A DNA stretch of 64,000 nt. Origin: Streptomyces sp. Q6. GTDB lineage: Bacteria; Actinomycetota; Actinomycetes; Streptomycetales; Streptomycetaceae. Each line of letters begins with the position of its first letter. Position 1 is the stretch's first letter. Under the pieces are notes generated by a model that saw nothing but the letters and a program-made list of their open reading frames with translations, was not told the origin of the DNA and made no database searches. Both the position numbers and the translations under genes were made by a program. Below, in pieces: positions 49,030-59,959 of the stretch. The DNA is taken from NCBI RefSeq assembly GCF_036967205.1, contig NZ_CP146022.1:3906001-3970000 (forward strand), written 5' to 3'.

Positions 49030-51297
49030 TCAATCGTCCGCGTGCGGCAGGGCCAGGGCAAGGTAGGGATTGGCTGCCTGCGGTGTCGCCTGAGGCATTT
49101 CCAGCCAGTGAAGGGCCTTGCGGAGGGTCGTCTTGTAGGAGCCGACGGCCCGCCGGACATTGGGAGCGTCCAGGCCGGAGCCGGTGACGAGCCGGTCCAG
49201 GTCCACATAGGCCGAGCGGACCTGTTCGAGGCCGCGGTAGGCGGGGACGTCCCCCTCCCAGCCTCGGGTGAAGCGCTCGGGAAGACACCGCTCCCAGCGG
49301 GAGTACATCCGCTCCCTGATCTCCCTGGTCGTCGGCGTCAGATGGATGTGCCGCACGAGGTCATACAGCGGGTCACCCACCATCGCCATCTCCCAGTCGA
49401 TGAGCGCGAGACCGAAGCCGCGTTCCTGTCGCACCAGGTTCCAGGGATTCAAGTCACCGTGCAGCAGGCTGTAGTGACGATCCGTCACGTCATGACTGAG
49501 CAGCCTGAGCTCCAGCTCGACCTCGTCGGGCAGGCCCAGCATGGCGGCGAGATCCTTGGTCTTGCGCGAGAACTGCCGCACCATCAAAGCGAGTTGGGAG
49601 CACATCCACGCGTAGAAGCCGACGCCGCTCATGTCCTGGGTCAACGACCGGTTGTCGACCTGCGACAGTGCCACCAGCTGGTCCACCAGGTCGTGCGCCT
49701 CGCCGGGAAGCAGTCCGTGCACCGGGTGCACCGGGCTGCTCTGGATGTCGGAGGGCCCCACGTAGGACTGGATGGTGAACTGGTCCTCGACGTCGCTGAC
49801 CCCCAGCGCGAGGACCTTGGGCACGCTGACGGCCGCACCCGAGTCCTCGATCGCCCGGAGCACCGAGTGTTCCGAGAGCGACCGGGGCTCGATCGGGGTC
49901 GCGTTGCCCACCTTCCGGCGCACCATGACGGGCCCGTAGCCCGCGACGCGAACGACCGTGCCCAGGTGGGCGGTGCCTTTGAAGACCTGCCGGGCCGTGG
50001 CCGCGCCCTCCGCCCACAGCGCCTCCTCGACCTCCGAGGCGGTGAAGTGCTCACGCAACTGGACGCGTTCGTCCCGCTGCCAGTTGATGGAGGCCGAGAA
50101 CGTGCCGCGGTGGCGTGCGCCCCGGGCCACCCGCCAGCGGTAGAGCAGGGGCTCGATCGCCGCCGGTTCCAGGACATTGCGCAGCCTGAGCGGGCGGCGG
50201 GCGACGGTGAGCGCGCGGTGCACCTCCGCCGCCGCGCCCTCCAGATCGCTCTGGCTGAAGTTCTCGCCCAGCGAGCCGACCGCACGGATCACGTCCGGAT
50301 ACACGGACTGGGCGTGCTCGAAGTCGATGTAGTGCCGCAGATCGGCGTCGAGGCCGCGGGTCGCCTCGGGGCGGACCTGCCCCATCGCCTTCTCCCAGCA
50401 CCTGATCACCTCCGACTCCTGATCCGGCGGGTACTGCATCCGCACCAGGTGGACGGCGAGGTCGTGGAGCGGATCCCCGTACGTCGCCAACTCCCAGTCC
50501 ACACAGACCATCGGAGGCTCGCCGTCGTACGTGATGCCTCCGACCTCCCGGCCCGGACCGCTCTCGAGGAGCCGGAACGGCCGACGGCCCTCGTACGTGA
50601 CGATGACGTTGTCCCGGTGCAGGTCACCGTGGAGGAGTTGGAACGGACGGCGGGTGAGATTGGGCGCCCACACGTCCGACAACCGCAGGGCGTTCTCCGG
50701 GACGCCCAGCGCCACGAACAGTCCACCGAACTCGGCCCAGTTGGGCTGACGGATCTGCCCCTCCGCCTGGATCAGCAGGGTCCTCAGGAACCCTCGGCTG
50801 TCGCCGTCCCTCGGCCAATACTCGGGGCAGGCGGGCAGCGCGTGCGACGGCACCTTCGCCATGTCCGCCAGCAGCCCGGCGAAGGCCTCGATCAGCAGGG
50901 CGTCCACCGGCTTGCCGTTCCGGCAGATGCTGGAGAGTGGTGTGCCCTCCATGTAGCTGTGGATCGACGTGTCCCCGAAGCGCGCCAGGCACTGAGGCAC
51001 GTGCCGCAGGGTTCCGCCCATCGCGCCCAGGACCGCCTGCTCCTCGCGCCACGTCCGGATCACGACCGGAGCGATCCCGGGCTTCCGCCGCCTGACCATG
51101 ACACGGGTGTCGGCGGACAGCCCGAGACGAGCGGCCTCCTGGTCGGACAGCGTGACCACATGGTTCAGGTTGTGGTGCCCGCTCATCCCCTCGCCGTGAC
51201 GCTGCGCACGCGCCACGACGCCACGCCACACGTCGTCGACGTCCGCGTCGGCGATCTGGCCGGACGTACTGGCACTCGGGGCGATGACAGCGCCCAC
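49030..51297 (-). CDS. Tandem aminoglycoside-phosphotransferase-fold double kinase
   Basis: A 755-residue protein with two complete APH/choline-kinase-like domains. Domain 1 has HGDLHRDN (His about 223) and VCVDWELATYGDPLHD (about 264). Domain 2 has HGDLNPWN (about 605) and LIDWEMAMVGDPLYD (about 625). Each has the Brenner H-G-D-x4-N catalytic loop and D-W-E metal motif, so both look active. A shorter linker (about 390-440) joins them. GTG 51297 is used; MSGHHN at residue 38 is an alternative. It heads a co-directional set with pfkB, tetR and the HelD-like gene. The small-molecule acceptors are unknown. Confidence 0.85.
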   Translation of the reverse strand: MGAVIAPSASTSGQIADADVDDVWRGVVARAQRHGEGMSGHHNLNHVVTLSDQEAARLGLSADTRVMVRRRKPGIAPVVIRTWREEQAVLGAMGGTLRHVPQCLARFGDTSIHSYMEGTPLSSICRNGKPVDALLIEAFAGLLADMAKVPSHALPACPEYWPRDGDSRGFLRTLLIQAEGQIRQPNWAEFGGLFVALGVPENALRLSDVWAPNLTRRPFQLLHGDLHRDNVIVTYEGRRPFRLLESGPGREVGGITYDGEPPMVCVDWELATYGDPLHDLAVHLVRMQYPPDQESEVIRCWEKAMGQVRPEATRGLDADLRHYIDFEHAQSVYPDVIRAVGSLGENFSQSDLEGAAAEVHRALTVARRPLRLRNVLEPAAIEPLLYRWRVARGARHRGTFSASINWQRDERVQLREHFTASEVEEALWAEGAATARQVFKGTAHLGTVVRVAGYGPVMVRRKVGNATPIEPRSLSEHSVLRAIEDSGAAVSVPKVLALGVSDVEDQFTIQSYVGPSDIQSSPVHPVHGLLPGEAHDLVDQLVALSQVDNRSLTQDMSGVGFYAWMCSQLALMVRQFSRKTKDLAAMLGLPDEVELELRLLSHDVTDRHYSLLHGDLNPWNLVRQERGFGLALIDWEMAMVGDPLYDLVRHIHLTPTTREIRERMYSRWERCLPERFTRGWEGDVPAYRGLEQVRSAYVDLDRLVTGSGLDAPNVRRAVGSYKTTLRKALHWLEMPQATPQAANPYLALALPHADD

Positions 51298-51445: not shown

Positions 51446-52324
51446 TCAGTGCGCCAGGTTCGTCCACACCGAGTCGAACCACGCCTGCCAGGCCTTCATG
51501 AAGACCGATCCGCGCGAGTCCGGGTTGTTCTGGTCCACGGCGTAGTGGGTGAGCATCGCCCCGAGCCCCAGGACGTCCAGGGCGTCGACCTCGGTGTCCC
51601 CCAGGACGATCGGCCGCTCGATCACCTCGTACGGGCCGTGCAGCGCCTGCGTGCCGTTGATCAAGTACAGCTTGAAGGTCGGCGTGAGGTCCACATGCCG
51701 GATGTCGATGCGCGCGGACTCCACCAGCTTCTCGGCCTGGAGCTGGCGCAGCTCCGCCCGGATCGATCCACTGTGCCGCCGCGTGATCCCCAGCAACCGC
51801 TGCCGGAGCTGGGCGGTGAGTTCCCCGCCCGCGTCGTCCAGTGCCCGCGGATACGGCAATTCGAGTGACTCCGTCGGCAGCAACATACGAATGGAGATGC
51901 TGCGCGGCGCCGTCAGGCCCGACCTGATCCGGTCGATCTGCCCCTTCACCTGCGTATCGAGCGACTCCGACGTGAGCGTGCAGACGTCGAGGACGACGTC
52001 GGGCCCGGCGAACGCCTCGTCGAAGAACTCACGCAGCGTCACCCTGCCCTCTTTGGCCGCCCGCGCCGTGTACGACTGCACCTGCTGCGCCCTGATGACC
52101 CGCGTGCCGCTGCCCTGGCGCGCCTCGATCCAGCCCTCGCCGGCCAGCTGCTCCAGAGCGCGCTGCACGGTGTCCCGGGAGATGTGGAACTCGTCGGCCA
52201 GCTTGCGCTGCGCCGGGAGGAGGGAGCCGAGCGGGTAGTCGCCGCCGGCCATGCGGGCCCGCAGCTCCTCCACGACACGGAAGACCTCCCTGCCGCCACT
52301 CCCACCACTCCGGCCGTTCGTCAC
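51446..52324 (-). CDS. GntR family regulator, DevA-like group (unit 1)
   Basis: A 292-residue protein from GTG 52324: an N-terminal GntR wHTH (FRVVEELRARMAGGDYPLGSLLPAQRKLADEFHISRDTVQRALEQLAGEGWIEARQGSG, about 15-73) and a C-terminal domain shared with devA and two neighbours (SISIRMLLPTESLELPYPR; FKLYLINGTQALHGPYEVIER; FMKAWQAWFDSVWTNLAH). That domain is not a recognised UTRA or FCD. It is divergent from small membrane protein 1. Confidence 0.88.
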   Translation of the reverse strand: MTNGRSGGSGGREVFRVVEELRARMAGGDYPLGSLLPAQRKLADEFHISRDTVQRALEQLAGEGWIEARQGSGTRVIRAQQVQSYTARAAKEGRVTLREFFDEAFAGPDVVLDVCTLTSESLDTQVKGQIDRIRSGLTAPRSISIRMLLPTESLELPYPRALDDAGGELTAQLRQRLLGITRRHSGSIRAELRQLQAEKLVESARIDIRHVDLTPTFKLYLINGTQALHGPYEVIERPIVLGDTEVDALDVLGLGAMLTHYAVDQNNPDSRGSVFMKAWQAWFDSVWTNLAH

Positions 52325-52534
52325 AGGGGGAACGTACCGCTGTCAGCCCAACGGCACACCAGATTCAGTCAACTTTCGCACATTTATTGGGTGTTGAGTA
52401 ACGATCTCCCGGCCAGGGGAAACCCAATCCAAGTCAACCAGTCCAATCGGTCCAGTTGGCCGGTTGGTCCGACAGTTGACAGCGATTGTCCGTACGGCGA
52501 CCTCGCGCCGGCGATGACACAAGGGGTGGGAACC

Positions 52535-52729
52535 ATGATCCTGATACCCGAAGTACTGGCGACGCTCCTGGGCTACGGCCTCGAAGAGTTCGTCCGCTCC
52601 GAGTACGGGCTGCTCGGCCTCCTCGCCCTGACCGTCTGCACCCTCACCTGGTCCGCCGAGCGCAAGTCGGTACCGTGGGCCGCCGTCGGTGCCGTACTGG
52701 CGCTGCTGCTCCTCGCGCAGACGTCCTGA
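52535..52729 (+). CDS. Small two-TM membrane protein 1
   Basis: A 64-residue protein with a short N-terminal segment (ILIPEVLATLLG), LEEFVRSEYGLLGLLALTVC (TM 1) and VPWAAVGAVLALLLLAQ (TM 2). It aligns in pattern (EE/EQ-x-V-x5-YG-x2-G) with the small membrane proteins at 55728 and 57113, but is the most diverged. It is divergent from GntR unit 1. Function unknown. Confidence 0.7.
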   Translation: MILIPEVLATLLGYGLEEFVRSEYGLLGLLALTVCTLTWSAERKSVPWAAVGAVLALLLLAQTS

Positions 52730-52745
52730 GTCCGGGGCCCGCCCC

Positions 52746-53651
52746 TCAGGCGTGCCCCCGCGCCACATGGTCCCAGACCCCGTCGAACATGGCCTGCTCC
52801 GCGTCCACGAAGGTCGCCTCGCCCACGCCCCTCGACCGGTCGAAGACGAACATCGACGTGTCGAACCCCTCCACGTCGCACAGCTCCACCGGGCTCGGCC
52901 CCGCGTACTCGTCGACCTCGCGCAGGAAGCGGCCGGGGACGTAGTGGCCGATGAGCACCTCCTGCCGGTTCAGCAGGTACGCCTTACGGCTCGGGGTGCC
53001 GATCGTGTAGCGGAACTCGATCCGCGCGTCGATCCCGCTGCGCCGCAGTCCCGCGAAGTTGCTGCGCAGCACCGTGCTCTGGGCCTCCCGCTGGATGCGG
53101 GTGCGCTCCTTGACGGCCTTCTCCAGCTTCTCGTCGTGGCCCCAACCGGCCACCGGGGACGGGTAGTCGAGGTCCTGCTCCAGGCTGGGCAGCAGGACAC
53201 GCAGACAGACCGAGCGCGGCCGGCTCGCCCCCTCGTACACATGCCGCAGGGGCTCCCCGAGCGCCGTCATGAGGGTCTCCGCCGTCAGGCAGGCCACGTC
53301 CACCCGTACGTCCGGGTCCTCGAAGGCGGCCACCAGGCGCGGACCCAGGATGCTGCGGGCCGAGCGCGAGCCGATCGGTGGCTCCACGGCCGAGGGCGCG
53401 ACCTGCGGCGGACTCCCCTTGCTCACGTTCGTCAGCAGCCCGTCCGCCTGCAACCGCTGGAGCGCGTTGCGCACCGTCCCGCGCTCCACGCCGAACTCCT
53501 CCGCCAGCGCGGCCTGCGTGGGCAGCCGGTCGCCGGGGCGGAGGGTGCCGGCCTTGATGCGGGCGCGCAGTTCGTCGGCGATCTCCTCGGACGTGGCCCG
53601 CGACGGGGACCCGGGGGCGGATCCGGGGCGGGCGTTGCTCTTGTCGTTCAC
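52746..53651 (-). CDS. GntR family regulator, DevA-like group (unit 2)
   Basis: About 301 residues from GTG 53651 (VNDKSNARPG, AGGGGAG upstream); in-frame ATGs at 53675 and 53690 are alternatives. GntR wHTH EEIADELRARIKAGTLRPGDRLPTQAALAEEFGVERGTVRNALQRLQADGLL is followed by the group-specific C-terminal domain (VRVDVACLTAETLMTALGEPLRHV; RSVCLRVLLPSLEQDLDYP; RKAYLLNRQEVLIGHYVPG). No small membrane protein gene is directly divergent from it. A perfect AGTTGGC-T-GCCAACT palindrome lies 49 bp upstream. Confidence 0.88.
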   Translation of the reverse strand: MNDKSNARPGSAPGSPSRATSEEIADELRARIKAGTLRPGDRLPTQAALAEEFGVERGTVRNALQRLQADGLLTNVSKGSPPQVAPSAVEPPIGSRSARSILGPRLVAAFEDPDVRVDVACLTAETLMTALGEPLRHVYEGASRPRSVCLRVLLPSLEQDLDYPSPVAGWGHDEKLEKAVKERTRIQREAQSTVLRSNFAGLRRSGIDARIEFRYTIGTPSRKAYLLNRQEVLIGHYVPGRFLREVDEYAGPSPVELCDVEGFDTSMFVFDRSRGVGEATFVDAEQAMFDGVWDHVARGHA

Positions 53652-53699
53652 CGCGACCCACTCCCCTCGCGCCATGCCAAGTCCCGTCAACTCTACGTC

Positions 53700-53714
53700 A
53701 GTTGGCTGCCAACT
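53700..53714. promoter_or_regulatory. Palindrome AGTTGGCTGCCAACT, upstream of GntR unit 2
   Basis: A perfect 7+1+7 inverted repeat, the tightest member of the shared AGTTGG-N3-CCAACT family also at 55628 and 56976. It is a likely GntR operator. Confidence 0.7.
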
Positions 53715-53804
53715 CGCCCAGGCGTGCGTGCATACATGCGTGCGACTCCCTGAACGGGCAGGTGAAGGGCATGGACGGAGAGGGTCGGGCGGGGTCGGGC
53801 CGTG

Positions 53805-54638
53805 TCAGGTGCGCTTGATGAGGATGCCCAGGAGCGTCTGCAGTGAACCGATCACATGCCGTGCCCCCGCGTCCCGCAGCAGCCCGGCCTTGCGCTCGTT
53901 GCGGGCGTAACCGAGGAATCCGACGCCCGCGGCCCGCGCCGCCGCGAGGTCCGTGGGGGTGTCGCCGATCATCAGGGTCGCCGCGGGGGCCGCGCCCATC
54001 GCCTGGAGCGCGCGGTTGAGGCAGTACGGGTCCGGCTTCAGGAGTTTCAGGTCCTGGGTGCGGCCGTAGATGTGCGGCTCGAAGCACGCGGACAGGCCGC
54101 GGCCCTCGATGTAGCGGCGGGCCGCCTCGGGGGCGTTGTTCGTGGTGATGGCGAGGCGCGCGCCCACCGCGGTCCAGGTGCGGATGAGCGGATCCGCGTG
54201 TTCCGTGGGCCACGCGGAGCGGACGGCGCGCAGCTCCTGGTCGGTGAGACGTTTCTCCATCTCGACGACGAGGTCGCTGTCGGGGCGCTGGAGACCCAGG
54301 CTGCGCAGCGCGCTGTGCGGGTCCTCGTCGACGCGCTCGGCCGGGGTCAGCGCCTCGCCCAGGCCCTGTCCGTCCAGCCACTCCACCTGCGCGCGGGCGA
54401 TCATCGATGCCGGCCGGCCCGCGAAGAGCCGGCAGATCGGCCCGTCGAAGTCGAAGAGCACGTAGCGCGCGCCCTTGACCAACTCGGCCAGCTCCTCCGG
54501 CCCGGCGGCCGGCTCCGCCGTCTCCGCGCGCTCCACCGGACCGGCCCGCTCCACCGACTCGCTCAGCTCGCCCGGTTCCCGCTGAGGTTCCTTCTCGTCT
54601 GCCACCGGAACAGTCTGCTTCGTCGCATCTGAAGTCAC
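53805..54638 (-). CDS. devB: HAD superfamily hydrolase DevB
   Basis: A 277-residue HAD protein: LFDFDGPICRLFAG (motif I, Asp nucleophile and acid), TTNNAPEAARRYIEGRG (motif II-like), KPDPYCLNRALQAMG (motif III Lys) and LMIGDTPTDLAAARAAGVGFLG (motif IV), with a phosphoglycolate-phosphatase-like cap. The start GTG 54638 overlaps the devA TAG (TAGTG). In S. coelicolor devA and devB form an operon needed for aerial development (by recall). It has an acidic N-terminal extension of about 40 residues. Confidence 0.85.
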   Translation of the reverse strand: MTSDATKQTVPVADEKEPQREPGELSESVERAGPVERAETAEPAAGPEELAELVKGARYVLFDFDGPICRLFAGRPASMIARAQVEWLDGQGLGEALTPAERVDEDPHSALRSLGLQRPDSDLVVEMEKRLTDQELRAVRSAWPTEHADPLIRTWTAVGARLAITTNNAPEAARRYIEGRGLSACFEPHIYGRTQDLKLLKPDPYCLNRALQAMGAAPAATLMIGDTPTDLAAARAAGVGFLGYARNERKAGLLRDAGARHVIGSLQTLLGILIKRT

Positions 54639-55516
54639 TAGGAGAGTGTCAGGTCGGACGTGATGGTTTCCCAGAGGGCGGTGAACCACTTCTGCGACTC
54701 CTCCACGAACGCCCGGTCCCGGTGCCCCGCCCGCTTCTCGAACGAGAAGAGCAGCGCCTGCGTGCCCGTGGCGGCGTACATCTCCAGCTTGGTGCCGCTG
54801 TCGATCTCCTCCTCGCGGCGCGTGACCATGTAGTACGACAGGAGCGCCTCGGCGTCGTTGAGCAGATAGAGCTTGACCGGCGGGGTGAACGGCAGGGCGC
54901 GGAAGGTCACGTGGACGTCGATGCCGTGCGAGGAGCGCAGCGAGCGGAGGTTGTGGCGCAGCACCTGGCCCTGCGCGTTGCGCGTGGCGAGCCAGCGCCG
55001 GTGGACGGTCTCCTCGTCGGTCGCGCTCGATCCGTCGGCGACGGGGACGGGGAACGCGAGGTCGATGTCGCGGCTGGGCAGCAGGATGCGTACGTCGATG
55101 GACTCGGGGCGCATCCGGCCCTCGTGGATGAGGCGCAGCGGCTCGCCGAGCGCCAGCATCAGCGTCTCCGAGGTCATGCAGACCGCGTCGATGCGTACGT
55201 GCGGCGCGTCGAACGCCTCGACCAGGCGGGGGGCGAGGCCGACCATCGTGGGCTGCGGCTGGTCACCGCCGGGGGCCGAGGAGGCGATCCGGGGCGGGCT
55301 GCCCTTGCTGATGTTGCTCAACAGGCCGTCGGTCTGGAGGAGTTGGAGGGCCTGGCGGACCGTGCCGCGCTCCACGCCGAACTCCTCGGCGAGCATCGCC
55401 TGCGTGGGCAGCCGGTCGCCCGCCCTGAGCTCGCCGGCCCTGATGCGCTCGCGCAGGTCGTCGGCTATCTCCTGAGGTCCGCGCCTTCTGCTGCCGTTCA
55501 GTGTCGTGTCCGCCAT
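54638..55516 (-). CDS. devA: GntR family developmental regulator DevA
   Basis: A 292-residue protein from ATG 55516 (AGGAGAG upstream); GTG 55540 is an alternative and follows a promoter-like block also found before devE. GntR wHTH QEIADDLRERIRAGELRAGDRLPTQAMLAEEFGVERGTVRQALQLLQTDGLL is followed by the group C-terminal domain (RIDAVCMTSETLMLALGEPL; ESIDVRILLPSRDIDLAFPV; PPVKLYLLNDAEALLSYY; ALWETITSDLTLS). The symbol is assigned from overlap with a HAD gene and from conserved gene order with S. coelicolor devA-devB. Confidence 0.85.
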   Translation of the reverse strand: MADTTLNGSRRRGPQEIADDLRERIRAGELRAGDRLPTQAMLAEEFGVERGTVRQALQLLQTDGLLSNISKGSPPRIASSAPGGDQPQPTMVGLAPRLVEAFDAPHVRIDAVCMTSETLMLALGEPLRLIHEGRMRPESIDVRILLPSRDIDLAFPVPVADGSSATDEETVHRRWLATRNAQGQVLRHNLRSLRSSHGIDVHVTFRALPFTPPVKLYLLNDAEALLSYYMVTRREEEIDSGTKLEMYAATGTQALLFSFEKRAGHRDRAFVEESQKWFTALWETITSDLTLS

Positions 55517-55627
55517 GTCTGCCACGCTCTCCTGAGTCACAACCAAACGGTACAACTTCCCTTGATTTGGCGGGAGTTGTTGGCGACTTGTTTTAGTACC
55601 GCAACCAAGTGGGGACAACCTTCATAC

Positions 55628-55642
55628 AGTTGGTAGCCAACT
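55628..55642. promoter_or_regulatory. Palindrome AGTTGG-TAG-CCAACT between devA and small membrane gene 2
   Basis: A 6+3+6 inverted repeat midway in the divergent promoter region (112 bp upstream of devA ATG, 86 bp upstream of small membrane protein 2). Same family as 53700 and 56976. Confidence 0.7.
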
Positions 55643-55727
55643 TGGCGAAAGCTAGCCGGAGATGGCGAGCACCTAGACCAACCGTCACCACCGTACGAGT
55701 CCGAAGCCGATGCAGGAGGAAACCGTC

Positions 55728-55919
55728 ATGCCTCTCCTGAGCCTCCTCTCCGCGGTGTTCGTGATCACCTTCGAGCAGCTCGTCCAGTGGCACTACGGAC
55801 CGGCCGGCATCGCGGGTCTGCTTCTGCTGACCCTCGGCGTCAAGGCCCGCAACGCCACCTGCAGCTCCATCGGCGGCGTACTGCTCGCGATCATGGTGGC
55901 CGGCCCCGCGCTCCACTGA
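55728..55919 (+). CDS. Small two-TM membrane protein 2
   Basis: A 63-residue protein, ATG 55728 with AGGAGGA 7 nt upstream. It reads MPLLSLLSAVFVITFEQLVQ, then HYGPAGIAGLLLLTLGVKAR and a last hydrophobic stretch SSIGGVLLAIMVAGPAL. The FEQLVQWHYGPAGI core is nearly the same as in small membrane protein 3. It is divergent from devA. Confidence 0.85.
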   Translation: MPLLSLLSAVFVITFEQLVQWHYGPAGIAGLLLLTLGVKARNATCSSIGGVLLAIMVAGPALH

Positions 55920-55961
55920 TCCTCCCCACCGGGCGGGTCGACACAGCTGGGAACCCCGCAT

Positions 55962-56888
55962 CTAGGAACTGAGCGTCAGGTCCGAACTGATGGTGTTCCA
56001 GAGGCTGTTGAACCACAGGTGGGACTGCTCCACGAACGTCGTGTCGCGCAGTCCCGCCCCCTGTTCGAAGGCGAAGAGCATCTGCCGCACCCCCTGTGCG
56101 TCGTACACGTCCACCCGCTCGTGGTCGATCTGCGCGCCGCGCCGGGACAGCGTGTAGTACGCGAACAGCGCCTCGTTGCTGTTGAGCAGATAGAGCTTGA
56201 CCGGTGGCGTGAACGGCAGGGCCCGGAACTCCACCGACACGTCGATCCCGTGCGTCGCGCGCAGGGCCAGCAGGTTGTGCCTGAGCACCTGGCCCTGCGC
56301 GTTGCGCTGCGCCAGCCAGCTGCGCTGGAGCCGGCCGCCGACCACCGCGCCCGACCCGGAGCCCTCCTCGCCGTCGGCCGGGGCCGGGAAGGCGAGCTCG
56401 ATGTCGTTGCTGGGCAGCAGCACCCGTACGCGCACCTTGGCCGGTTTCATGCGGCCCGCGTGGATGTGGCGCAGCGGCTCCCCCATCGCGAGGGTGAGCG
56501 AGACCGCCGTCAGGCACAGGGCGTCGATCTCCACGTCGCGCTCCTGGAAGGCGGTCGCGATCCGCGGCGCGAGGGCCACCATCGTGGGCTGCGGCGGCGC
56601 GCCGGGGCCCAGGAAGGCCGACCTGGTGTTCTCGGCGACGGTGGCCGGGCTGCCCTTCGAGACATTGGCCAGCAGGTGCTCGGACTGGAGAACGCGCAGC
56701 GCCTGACGTACGGCGGACCGCTCCACACCGAACTCGTCCGCCAACTGCGCCTGCGTAGGCATGCGTTGGCCGGGACTCAGCAGCCCGGACCTGATCCGGG
56801 CGCGCAGCTCATCTGCCACCTCGCGGTACGACTGCTGCGCCCGCTGTGACGTGGGCCGTCCGTTGACGGCTGCATGCTCCGCACTCAC
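55962..56888 (-). CDS. devE: GntR family regulator DevE-like (unit 4)
   Basis: A 308-residue protein from GTG 56888: wHTH REVADELRARIRSGLLSPGQRMPTQAQLADEFGVERSAVRQALRVLQSEHLL, then the devA-type C-terminal domain (VEIDALCLTAVSLTLAMGEPLRHIH; PPVKLYLLNSNEALFAYY; SLWNTISSDLTLSS). It is closest to devA in this window (shared RHNL..LRATHGID and FRALPFTPPVKLYLLN). The symbol rests on the gene order devB-devA-small gene-devE recalled from S. coelicolor; treat as probable. No Shine-Dalgarno is visible; GTG may be leaderless. Confidence 0.75.
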   Translation of the reverse strand: MSAEHAAVNGRPTSQRAQQSYREVADELRARIRSGLLSPGQRMPTQAQLADEFGVERSAVRQALRVLQSEHLLANVSKGSPATVAENTRSAFLGPGAPPQPTMVALAPRIATAFQERDVEIDALCLTAVSLTLAMGEPLRHIHAGRMKPAKVRVRVLLPSNDIELAFPAPADGEEGSGSGAVVGGRLQRSWLAQRNAQGQVLRHNLLALRATHGIDVSVEFRALPFTPPVKLYLLNSNEALFAYYTLSRRGAQIDHERVDVYDAQGVRQMLFAFEQGAGLRDTTFVEQSHLWFNSLWNTISSDLTLSS

Positions 56889-56975
56889 AACCAAACACTA
56901 CAACTTCCCGCCATCTTTGGGGAGTTGAGAAGAAGGTGGTTATGAGTCGTGCTTCAGCGGAGATAAGTACCTGTG

Positions 56976-56990
56976 AGTTGGTGACCAACT
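56976..56990. promoter_or_regulatory. Palindrome AGTTGG-TGA-CCAACT between devE and small membrane gene 3
   Basis: A 6+3+6 inverted repeat. A second, imperfect copy AGTTGG-TCA-CCACT lies at 57067, 33 bp before the small membrane gene 3 ATG. Confidence 0.7.
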
Positions 56991-57112
56991 TGAGCGACCT
57001 GGTCGGACAACCTCGGGGGTTGGCGTCGGTCACACAGGTTGGTCTACGTCACCGCTATGTCGGGAGAGTTGGTCACCACTCGGACCCATAGGTCCCGAAG
57101 GAGGTAAGTCCC

Positions 57113-57298
57113 ATGCCGGTCTTCGCCATCCTCATCGCCGCGCTCGCCATCGGATTCGAGCAGCTCATCCAGTGGAAGTACGGGCCGATGGGCATCATCG
57201 CGTTCATCGTGCTTTCCATCGGACTCAAAGCCAAGAACACCATGATCAGCGGCATCGGGGCGGTCGTCCTCGTCATGCTGCTGGCTCAGAGCGGCTGA
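57113..57298 (+). CDS. Small two-TM membrane protein 3
   Basis: A 61-residue protein, ATG 57113 with an excellent AAGGAGGT. It reads MPVFAILIAALAIGFEQLIQ, then KYGPMGIIAFIVLSIGLKAK and a closing IGAVVLVMLLAQSG. Paralog of small membrane protein 2 (FEQLxQWxYGPxGI, GxKAxN) and divergent from devE. It probably inserts in the cytoplasmic membrane with a Lys/Asn-containing inter-helix loop. Confidence 0.85.
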   Translation: MPVFAILIAALAIGFEQLIQWKYGPMGIIAFIVLSIGLKAKNTMISGIGAVVLVMLLAQSG

Positions 57299-57367: not shown

Positions 57368-58648
57368 TCAGAAGACGTCGGGGCACCACGGTCGCCGCGG
57401 CGTACGGAACAGGGCGTCGGCGACGACGGCGGCGCCCGTCTCCTCCTCCACCACCCGGCCCAGGGCGGCGAGCCGCACCGCGGACGCGTCACCCAGCCAC
57501 AACGCCCCCAACTCACCTACGTCGAGCGTGAGCTGGGGTGCCGCGGCGCTCGGCTCACAGACCGCTCCGTCGGGCGCCGCCGCCAACCTGAACCGTCCCC
57601 CGGCGAGCCCGGCCCGGTCGCGCACCTCGATCACCAGCTCACCGCTCGCGTCGTACGACCGCGCCTCCAGGGCCCGTACGACGTCCAGGATCCGCACCCA
57701 CAGGAAGTCGGCCTGCGTCACGACGCGGGCGGCCCGGGGGTCGGGCAGCAGGTGCGGCAGCAGGTCGTCGGGGGCGCGCAGGCCGCTGCGCACGGTCGTC
57801 ACCCAGTCGATCGCGCACAGGTAGTGCCACAGGGCACGCTCGGCGGCCGGCGTGACACCGGTCAGGCTCAGCACCTTCGCCGTGTTCCGCGGCTGCTTGG
57901 CGTCGCCCCAGCGGTCGTCCACCCGGTAGGTGACCAGGCCCTCCACCTCGCCGCGCGCGCTGCGGTACACGGCGCAGAAGGGCTCGTTCCACGGGTCCTC
58001 GGGGGTCGGCCACAGGCCGGTGTTGTACTGCCACCAGAAGTCGTCGCGCGAGATCACGCCCGCGATCCGCCCGCGTTGCAGCCGCTCGTGCAGTTCGGGC
58101 CCGACCTTGCGCAGCTCGGCCATGTCCGCGAGGTCGATCCGGCCGCCGTCGTCGGGGCCCGACCAGCGCGGGTCGAGCCCGGTCCGGGCGACGTCGATCT
58201 CCCAGGCCGTGGCCGTGGTCGCCTGCCCGAACCCGTACCGCCCGTAGATCGGGTACTCGGCGGCGATCAGCGTGGCCGCGACGTCGCCGCGCGCCTTCGC
58301 GTCGGTCAGGGCGTCGGCCATCATGCGGCTGAGCAGACCGCGGCGGCGGTGCGTGGAGCTGACCGTGACGTTGCTGATCGCGTCGGTGGGGACGCGGGCG
58401 CCGCCGGGGACGGTGAGCCGCTGCGCGAAGGAGCGGAACGTGCCGACCTGCCGGACGTCACCGGACCCGTCCGGCGCGAAGGCGGCCCGGGTGCGGGTGA
58501 GGTCGAAGTGGGCGCGCACCTTGGCGAGGCGCTCCGCCGAGGCGGTCGGGGTGAGCAGGAATCCGGTGTTCAGGGAGCGCAGCCACGCGGGCAGCTCGTC
58601 ATCGGTGATCGTCCGTACGTCTGCGCCCTCGGCGGTGCGGGTGGTCAT
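57368..58648 (-). CDS. Eis-like GNAT (enhanced intracellular survival family) acetyltransferase
   Basis: A 426-residue protein of the Eis layout: two GNAT modules and a C-terminal sterol-carrier-like domain. Motif A is [18 protein letters not shown] (about 98-115), with [15 protein letters not shown] after it, [18 protein letters not shown] starting the SCP2-like region, and a C-terminal Phe (CPDVF) whose carboxylate acts as general base in Eis. Eis-type enzymes acetylate aminoglycosides or protein lysines; the specific acceptor is unknown here. Confidence 0.9.
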
Positions 58649-58719: not shown

Positions 58720-59349
58720 CTACCCGCCGAGCAGGTCGTCGACCTGTGCCTCCCCGTCCCGGTAGCGCCGCGCGATCTCCGCGCTGCATCCGTCCGCCGT
58801 GCGCTGCAACTGCTGCCGGCGCCGGGAGACCTGCTGCTCGTAGCGGACCAGGCGCCCCATCGCGGTGTGCAGCTCGTCGTCGGTCCGCGCGTCCAGGTCG
58901 GACAGCTCGACCTCCGAGAGCATGTCGGCGGCCAGCCGCCGGAACTCCTCGCTGTGCGGCGTACCCAGCGTGACGTGCCGGGCCGAGGAGCGCTGTCGCG
59001 TCGGCTGGTCCCGCAGGATCTCCGAGAGCCGGTCCACCACCGGGCTCTCCGGATCGCGCCGGCGCGCCAACTCGGCCCGCAGGATGTCGATCCGCCCCTG
59101 GAGCAGACGCCGTACGTAACTGAGGTCCGCCTCGTCCTGCTGCGAGTCGCGGCGCAGCGTCCGCAGCTCGGGCAGGCGCAGGTCCGACAGTTCGGGCGTG
59201 GGTGCGGGCGGCAGCTCCGGGCTGCCGATGCGCTGGACAGGTGGCCGGGCGAGCGCCGCGCCCCGGCCCCCGTGCGTCAGCGACACGGGTGCCCCGGGCG
59301 GAGCGGGCAGCCCCGAACTAGTGGTGTGGCTCATGGCATTGGCATCCAT
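58720..59349 (-). CDS. rsiG: c-di-GMP-dependent anti-sigma factor RsiG
   Basis: About 209 residues with a Pro/Ala-rich disordered leader (about 1-60) and a long antiparallel helical pair. The c-di-GMP signature E-x3-S-x2-R-x3-Q-x3-D is exact in EADLSYVRRLLQGRID. RsiG, armed with c-di-GMP, sequesters the sporulation sigma factor WhiG in Streptomyces. A second helical half (LSDLDARTDDELHTAMGRLVRYEQQVSRRRQQL) fits the partner helix. ATG 59349 is chosen; ATG 59334 is an alternative. Confidence 0.88.
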   Translation of the reverse strand: MDANAMSHTTSSGLPAPPGAPVSLTHGGRGAALARPPVQRIGSPELPPAPTPELSDLRLPELRTLRRDSQQDEADLSYVRRLLQGRIDILRAELARRRDPESPVVDRLSEILRDQPTRQRSSARHVTLGTPHSEEFRRLAADMLSEVELSDLDARTDDELHTAMGRLVRYEQQVSRRRQQLQRTADGCSAEIARRYRDGEAQVDDLLGG

Positions 59350-59533
59350 GGCGTGCTTACCGTCCCCTCGACCGGACTGACGCGGCGCGCCATCGGCGCA
59401 CCACGTGTGAGCATGGTGCCACTCCTGATGGCCGCTAAGTGCGCGAGTGCCCCATATCCGCCCCGGATGGGGGGTTCGGGAGCACGCAGGAGTGCGGGAC
59501 GAGGGCGCCGCGAGGGCACGGCATGATGGCCGT

Positions 59534-59959
59534 ATGCGTGCAGTGGTGCAGAGAGTGGACGGCGCGAGCGTCGTCGTGGACGAGGACGTCGTGGGCGAGA
59601 TCAAGGGCGAGGGCCTGTGCGTCCTCGTCGGGGTCACCCACGAGGACACCAAGGAGAAGGCGGCCCAACTGGCCCGCAAACTCTGGTCGATCCGGATGCT
59701 CGCCGACGAGAGGTCGTGCAGCGACATCGACGCGCCGCTCCTGGTCATCAGCCAGTTCACGCTCTACGGCGACGCCCGCAAGGGCCGCCGTCCCACGTGG
59801 AACGCGGCGGCGCCCGGCGAGGTCGCCGAGCCGCTGGTCGAGGAGGTCGTGGCGCAGCTGCGGGCGCTCGGCGCGACCGTGGCGACGGGCCGGTTCGGGG
59901 CGCAGATGCGGGTGTCCCTGACGAACGACGGCCCGTTCACGGTCCTGCTCGAGATGTAG
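59534..59959 (+). CDS. dtd: D-aminoacyl-tRNA deacylase
   Basis: The 141-residue enzyme hydrolyses D-aminoacyl-tRNAs. Family motifs: [16 protein letters not shown] start, [17 protein letters not shown] (with the SQFTL catalytic segment, about 73-90) and the C-terminal [13 protein letters not shown] Gly-cisPro/NxGP region. The stop is adjacent to the convergent ygfZ stop. Confidence 0.96.

What the first reader, a model, noticed from the sequence alone, without database searches (positions are those of the whole stretch)
51446..57298. Array of DevA-like GntR regulators, tiny two-TM proteins and a HAD hydrolase
Four GntR proteins share not only the HTH but an unusual common C-terminal domain (VRxLLPSxDxDxxFP ... 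KxYLLNxxEAL ... WxxxWxxxxxxL) that is neither obvious UTRA nor FCD. Three are divergently paired with a roughly 60-residue membrane protein, two of which share the FEQLxQWxYGPxGI core. devB sits behind devA. Units at 51.4, 55.5 and 56.9 kb have the regulator plus small membrane protein layout, and the one at 53.7 kb has lost it. This looks like a repeatedly duplicated regulator/membrane-peptide module, possibly a signalling pair in which the membrane peptide gates the GntR or is its product. Only devA, devB and devE have a known developmental link (recall); the small proteins appear undescribed.
Basis: partly seen in the sequence, partly recalled or inferred. Interest (0 to 1): 0.85.

Follow-up and report, generated by a model that had tools for sequence, protein, structure and literature searches.

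The report
Self-contained Streptomyces developmental switch array
In a spore-forming soil bacterium, four duplicated gene switches sit side by side, each with a sensor part predicted to be shaped like a dead phospholipase D and three of them paired with a tiny membrane protein, and their probable DNA-binding sites point back almost only at this cluster, so the little-studied tiny proteins and a phosphatase are the likely outputs of this sporulation control point.

Summary
In detail: four GntR genes share one C-terminal domain; three are divergently paired with ~60-residue membrane proteins of one family. The array is not new: devA, devB, devC (the small protein), devE and S. sviceus devF/devG are named in PMC3187754. 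New here: (1) AlphaFold models of two divergent members give that domain a phospholipase-D-like fold; the HKD histidine is absent in 23 of 23 sequences, so it is probably a dead-enzyme sensor. (2) The palindrome AGTTGGYNRCCAACT occurs exactly three times in the 9-Mb genome, each time upstream of an array regulator; a second motif marks the 51-kb group in relatives. The circuits look closed. (3) Beside devA, the operator lies 12 nt (11 in a few relatives) behind a SigB-type devC promoter; the S. coelicolor counterpart SCO4189p is SigF/H/N-dependent in print. (4) Of 296 genomes drawn, 18 Streptomyces have DevC, each with the regulator; 14 more have the regulator without DevC, and all 10 full-length copies examined outside Streptomyces have the HAD gene instead. 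So DevC is more likely a repressed output than the regulator's gate. Binding, ligand and DevC function remain inferred.

The parts
51446..52324 (-). GntR regulator with PLD-like C-terminal domain, most divergent of the four
   Evidence: PF00392 70 bits; C-domain model pLDDT 95.2, PLD-like fold
52438..52450 (.). degenerate form of the second motif (AACCAGTCCAATTGG in relatives)
   Evidence: intact motif in 18 of 150 genomes, 18 of 18 beside such regulators
52535..52729 (+). DevC-family small membrane protein, 64 aa, divergent from the 51.4-kb regulator
   Evidence: left-out HMM E 9e-6; whole-genome hit E 2e-14 with a model that includes it
52746..53690 (-). GntR regulator with the shared C-domain, no small partner; HTH 73% identical to DevA; start codon uncertain
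53700..53714 (.). operator AGTTGGCTGCCAACT upstream of the 52.7-53.7 kb regulator
53805..54689 (-). devB: HAD-family (phosphoglycolate-phosphatase-like) hydrolase behind devA; start codon uncertain
   Evidence: PF00702 66 bits; NCBIfam PGP_bact 49.9 bits, below its cut-off of 180
54638..55516 (-). devA: GntR regulator with PLD-like sensor domain
   Evidence: AlphaFold pLDDT 90.6; fold searches; named by context, see full report
55590..55616 (+). SigB-type promoter of devC, GTTTTA-15-GGGGAC; S. coelicolor counterpart SCO4189p is SigF/H/N-dependent in print
55628..55642 (.). operator AGTTGGTAGCCAACT; its GTTGG core begins 12 nt behind the devC promoter
55728..55919 (+). devC, 63-aa membrane protein divergent from devA (the mechanical ORF starts at 55710)
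   Evidence: ribosome-binding site AGGAGG read directly
55962..56894 (-). devE-type GntR regulator with PLD-like sensor domain; start codon uncertain
56976..56990 (.). operator AGTTGGTGACCAACT between devE and its small partner
57113..57298 (+). second DevC-family membrane protein, 61 aa, divergent from devE; probable counterpart of SCO4187 (inferred from gene order and size)
   Evidence: SCO4187 listed as a 6268-Da putative membrane protein in PMC2000904

Best explanation
The array is a set of duplicated, self-contained repressor circuits. Each regulator has a GntR winged-helix domain and a sensor domain with the fold of phospholipase D that has lost the catalytic histidine. The regulator is inferred to bind a private palindrome in the divergent gap, repressing its own gene (with devB behind devA) and the gene of a two-helix membrane protein, DevC. 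The devC gene beside devA is read by a SigB-family sigma factor of differentiation and stress, so DevC is made only when that sigma factor is active and a small ligand has released the regulator. The regulator-HAD pair is the older core, so the ligand is probably phosphorylated and DevB probably removes or remakes it, closing a feedback loop; DevC was added in Streptomyces as a membrane output. Shown by sequence: domain, duplication, confinement of the palindromes in this genome, DevC family, fixed promoter/palindrome geometry. Predicted: fold. In print for S. coelicolor: autorepression, control of devB, SigF/H/N dependence of SCO4189p in E. coli, developmental phenotypes of devA, devB and devE. 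Inferred: which protein binds which palindrome, ligand, loss of catalysis, DevC as output, its action at the membrane.
Against: No sequence match to any PLD family: no Pfam PLD row at E<=1, no PLD chain in the PDB sequence search up to E 10, hhalign probability only 7. The fold rests on predicted models with middling Z; for the C-domain alone only one Foldseek row has E under 0.001. No binding data for either palindrome. The control for operator 1 (motif read backwards) also matches, 28 sites in 24 of 150 genomes by my count of the table, against about 150 sites for the motif, so a fair share of its sites in relatives, mainly those off the array, may be chance; 2 of 30 loci had no array gene, and sites not given loci were not examined. 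Window palindromes 1 were seen at three regulators, not at the 51-kb one. The devE-side and 51-kb-side devC genes of the window have no recognisable SigB-type promoter. The 51-kb pair does not co-vary as one unit: its regulator and small protein point to different modules in 15 of 16 comparisons.
Confidence: 0.6

Rival explanations
1. DevC gates the regulator: the membrane protein binds the PLD-like domain and tethers or inactivates the repressor at the membrane, so the pair is a signalling unit.
For: Tight divergent linkage (56 of 58; 183 of 189); in 17 loci with two or more modules the regulator's and the small protein's best matches pick the same module in 540 of 656 comparisons against 284 by chance; conserved EQLxQWxYG and KAK/KAR segments in most members.
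Against: The regulator exists without DevC in 14 of 32 genomes, among them all 10 outside Streptomyces; the array's second copy has no DevC; co-inheritance of neighbours gives the same agreement without contact; the 51-kb pair disagrees.
Confidence: 0.22
2. DevC is a membrane-active, toxin-like or holin-like peptide whose dose stops hyphal growth, and the repressors hold it back; duplication keeps dosage under separate developmental control.
For: Small two-helix membrane protein beside a dedicated regulator, with a SigB-type promoter at the devA-side copy.
Against: No Pfam or NCBIfam row over its cut-off for any of the three, and no toxin or holin among the weak rows; absent from many genomes that keep the regulator.
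Confidence: 0.12
3. Ordinary metabolite-responsive GntR regulators with a usual effector domain; the small ORFs are chance or unrelated.
For: All four have normal GntR heads.
Against: No UTRA or FCD row, PLD-like models, small ORFs with coding signature and strict linkage.
Confidence: 0.03

Closest known systems
DevA subfamily of GntR regulators (devA-devB, devC, devE; devF/devG in S. sviceus; PMC3187754)
   Same: Same layout: devA with a HAD gene behind it, divergent small devC, adjacent duplicate devE; S. sviceus has four copies.
   Different: Here the effector domain is given a predicted fold, probable operators and their confinement are described, the small proteins are shown to be one family including the 51-kb copy, and the devC promoter is tied to the operator. 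The published statement that a devE-side devC is kept only in S. sviceus and S. coelicolor (few genomes then) is too narrow.
TrmB family of archaeal sugar regulators
   Different: Another DNA-binding head and an extra domain (recalled); no TrmB sensor match by sequence.
Pseudo-PLD domains of MITD1 and FAM83
   Same: PLD fold without catalysis, used for binding (recalled); structural hits.
   Different: Eukaryotic, not regulators of transcription (recalled).
SigB-family regulon of Streptomyces (SigF, SigH, SigN)
   Same: SCO4189p, the S. coelicolor devC promoter, is recognised by SigF, SigH and SigN in an E. coli two-plasmid test (PMC8346170, table row and passages).
   Different: A repressor operator behind that promoter is not mentioned in the passages I saw.

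Membership tests
GntR regulators | GntR winged helix-turn-helix (PF00392) above cut-off | tested here: met
   61-73 bits against 27 in all four
GntR, HutC (UTRA) or FadR (FCD) subfamilies | UTRA or FCD effector domain | tested here: not met
   No UTRA or FCD row at E<=1 for any of the four
Phospholipase D superfamily, fold | PLD alpha/beta fold | tested here: met
Phospholipase D superfamily, sequence | match to a PLD family profile | tested here: not met
   No Pfam PLD row at E<=1; hhalign probability 7 against 20 PLDc_2 domains
Phospholipase D superfamily, active enzyme | HxKxxxxD motif with the nucleophilic histidine | tested here: not met
   Histidine in 0 of 23, K in 23 of 23, N for D in 23 of 23; register from a weak hhalign alignment
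DevA subfamily (Clark and Hoskisson 2011) | devA with co-directional HAD devB and divergent small devC, duplicate devE alongside | tested here: met
   Layout in the window and relatives; promoter of the small gene matches SCO4189p
DevA subfamily (Clark and Hoskisson 2011) | negative autoregulation and developmental phenotype | not testable with these tools
   Published for S. coelicolor only (PMC3187754)
SigB-type promoter regulon | GTT at -35 and GGGxA at -10 with 13-15 nt spacing | tested here: met
   devA-side devC in the window; 35 of 56 divergent gaps against a mean of 0.5 in shuffles, with a pattern drawn partly from these gaps; not seen at the other two window devC genes
Toxin-antitoxin system | growth arrest by one partner, relief by the other | not testable with these tools
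   No family match over cut-off; needs an experiment

The most novel reading that the evidence does not exclude
A class of bacterial transcription repressors that uses a dead phospholipase-D fold to read a phosphorylated or lipid-headgroup signal, acts only on its own locus, and so turns one membrane peptide on at a set stage of hyphal development; the whole switch is copied as a cassette and each copy drifts to its own operator and timing.
Probability: 0.3. Interest if true: 0.75.

Novelty: new variant of a known kind. Interest (0 to 1): 0.55.

Why it matters
Loss of DevA or DevE spoils sporulation in S. coelicolor, yet the 2011 paper calls knowledge of their regulons and ligands early-stage, with devB the one known target. 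If their operators occur only at their own locus, the phenotypes must run through devB and the small membrane proteins, which makes those the things to delete and express. A pseudo-phospholipase sensor on a GntR head would also add an effector type to a very large regulator family and suggest a ligand class to screen.

Tried and rejected
Sequence-level proof of the PLD relation failed. Pfam gave HTH families for the regulators and one PadR fragment under its cut-off; the NCBIfam rows shown (25 of 29-34 for each regulator) matched only their N-terminal part; a profile search of PDB sequences up to E 10 gave one row, unrelated. hhalign against 20 PLDc_2 domains (22 of the 30 loci fetched were translated, two with stops dropped) gave probability 7, though it put the conserved PVKLYLLN on HAKIITVD. 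The VIA list for whole DevA is mostly GntR heads, so the C-domain of the most divergent copy was modelled alone.

Weak DUF3309 resemblance of the two FEQL proteins (E 0.26 and 0.29) and a Nucleos_tra2_N fragment in the 51-kb protein (18.7 bits, cut-off 27) were set aside as below cut-off. That regulator and small protein co-evolve by contact was tested by cross-matching modules in 17 loci; agreement is above chance, but linkage alone explains it and the 51-kb pair disagrees in 15 of 16. The shuffles are first-order Markov resamples, not exact dinucleotide shuffles, and its promoter pattern was drawn after seeing SCO4189p and these gaps. In one search five short or split C-domain hits were left out: 111 counted of 116. 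The 6 of 189 DevC hits without a counted partner: two lie at a contig end (L179, L230), one faces a regulator cut by the locus end (L164), two face regulators split in the match (L176, L204), one (L214) has only HAD genes beside it. The 57-locus and 80-locus sets share some genomes, so their counts are not independent.

In the held library the term sets tried found no paper for a PLD-like GntR domain (none) and none on DevC as a membrane protein beyond those cited (listings capped). The 2006 devA paper is not held, so whether it proposed an operator is unknown to me.
Full report
WHAT IS THERE. The window lies in a Streptomyces-type chromosome of about 9 Mb; its 57.1-kb small protein is 100% identical, over the query, to one in S. 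longispororuber strain PBR1. Four reverse-strand GntR genes stand between 51.4 and 56.9 kb, with one HAD gene behind the third and small forward ORFs facing three of them. I call them devA, devB, devC and devE from layout: in S. coelicolor devA is SCO4190 and devE SCO4188, devB is co-transcribed with devA, and a small devC diverges from devA (PMC3187754; parts 1-4 of 6 read). I did not compare the window proteins with the S. coelicolor sequences themselves.

THE SMALL PROTEINS. An HMM seeded with the two FEQL proteins and iterated over 57 loci (the window from 45 kb on, and 56 stretches of 3-19 kb from relatives) gave 58 members. Re-built from 44 strong members only, it still found the other 14, the 51-kb one at E 9e-6, the weakest at 9e-4. 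In the own genome the family HMM finds three genes, all in the array. In 296 actinobacterial genomes drawn evenly, DevC is in 18, all Streptomyces and all with the regulator; a 19th row is a 37-column hit (E 2.7e-5) in a 1.4-Mb genome of another genus. The regulator domain is in 32 of the same 296: 22 of 28 Streptomyces and 10 of 268 others. So DevC goes with the regulator, but the regulator does not need DevC. In the 57 loci, 56 of 101 full-length regulator domains in Streptomyces face a DevC and 0 of 10 outside it do, while those 10 all have the HAD gene behind them. Twenty-three of 57 loci have the regulator and no DevC; 20 of these have the HAD gene.

THE OPERATORS. Palindromes upstream of the regulators were counted without a preset motif: GTTGG-3-CCAAC stands out in 54 of 116 upstream stretches. 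The core AGTTGGYNRCCAACT occurs three times in the own genome, at 53700, 55628 and 56976 of the window. A 17-bp form with two mismatches allowed finds these three and five other places, each with two mismatches, while the reversed control finds seven, so the five look like chance. In 150 Streptomyces genomes 86 have the exact core, most with one or two sites; the reversed control matches in 24 of the 150, 28 sites against about 150 by my count of the table. One locus was fetched for each of 30 of the 86 genomes; 28 contain array genes within 1.5 kb. The other sites were not examined. The 51-kb group, whose HTH is 33-36% identical to the others, lacks this operator in the window; its gaps in relatives hold AACCAGTCCAATTGG, which is in 18 of 150 genomes, once each, control zero, within 1.5 kb of such regulators in 18 of 18 and of a DevC in 15 of 18. 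The window's own copy is degenerate (52438-52450).

THE PROMOTER. A SigB-type promoter (GTT[AT]NN, 13-15 nt, GGG[GCA]A[ACT]) is in 35 of 56 divergent gaps against a mean of 0.5 (most 2) in resampled sequences; the pattern was drawn partly from these gaps. Where promoter and operator 1 are both found, the operator core begins 12 nt behind the -10 element in 24 of 25 gaps and in 58 of 62 of the named set (183 gaps, 88 with the promoter, 142 with the operator); the others have 11. In PMC8346170 (a table row and passages seen) SCO4189p has -35 GTTTAT and -10 GGGGAC and is listed as SigF/H/N-dependent in an E. coli two-plasmid test. That promoter is the devC one: the upstream half of the devA-deletion oligonucleotide printed in PMC3187754, read in reverse, overlaps the start of SCO4189p by 14 nt, and SCO4189p and the window both carry CCAAGTGGGGACAAC. 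A repressor bound at the operator would block transcription of devC. The devE-side devC of the window has the operator but no such promoter; its probable counterpart SCO4187 is marked down in a table of a bldA-mutant study (PMC2000904, one passage).

MECHANISM AND LIMITS. [quoted passage not shown] Confined operators add a prediction: the array's phenotypes run through devB and devC. The HAD partner and a PLD-type pocket both suggest a phosphorylated ligand. None of binding, ligand, loss of catalysis or DevC action has been tested here, and the fold is predicted. The duplication itself, and devF/devG in S. sviceus, are published. The window's 52.7-kb copy, with an HTH 73% identical to DevA's and the same operator, looks like a closer duplicate of devA than the S. 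sviceus extras, which are 31-33% identical to DevA in print.

Noticed in passing
58720-59760 (-): An RsiG gene (PF22802, 125 bits), by its name the c-di-GMP-responsive anti-sigma factor of WhiG (listing), lies about 1.4 kb beyond the array: two sporulation controls side by side.
   Followed up: partly
49030-51297 (-): A 755-residue protein with APH phosphotransferase matches in three stretches, apparently a tandem fusion of kinase-like domains, beside the 51-kb regulator.
   Followed up: no
57368-58648 (-): An Eis-like (recalled) GNAT acetyltransferase with two acetyltransferase domains and an SCP2-like domain.
   Followed up: no
L135 and L156: Two of 30 fetched exact operator-1 sites in relatives have no array gene within 1.5 kb: chance, or rare extra targets.
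   Followed up: no
window 52535-52729: The 51-kb small protein and its regulator point to different modules in 15 of 16 other loci: partner replacement or old divergence.
   Followed up: partly
L119 and L120: In two relatives DevC lies on the HAD gene's side and faces that gene, not the regulator.
   Followed up: no
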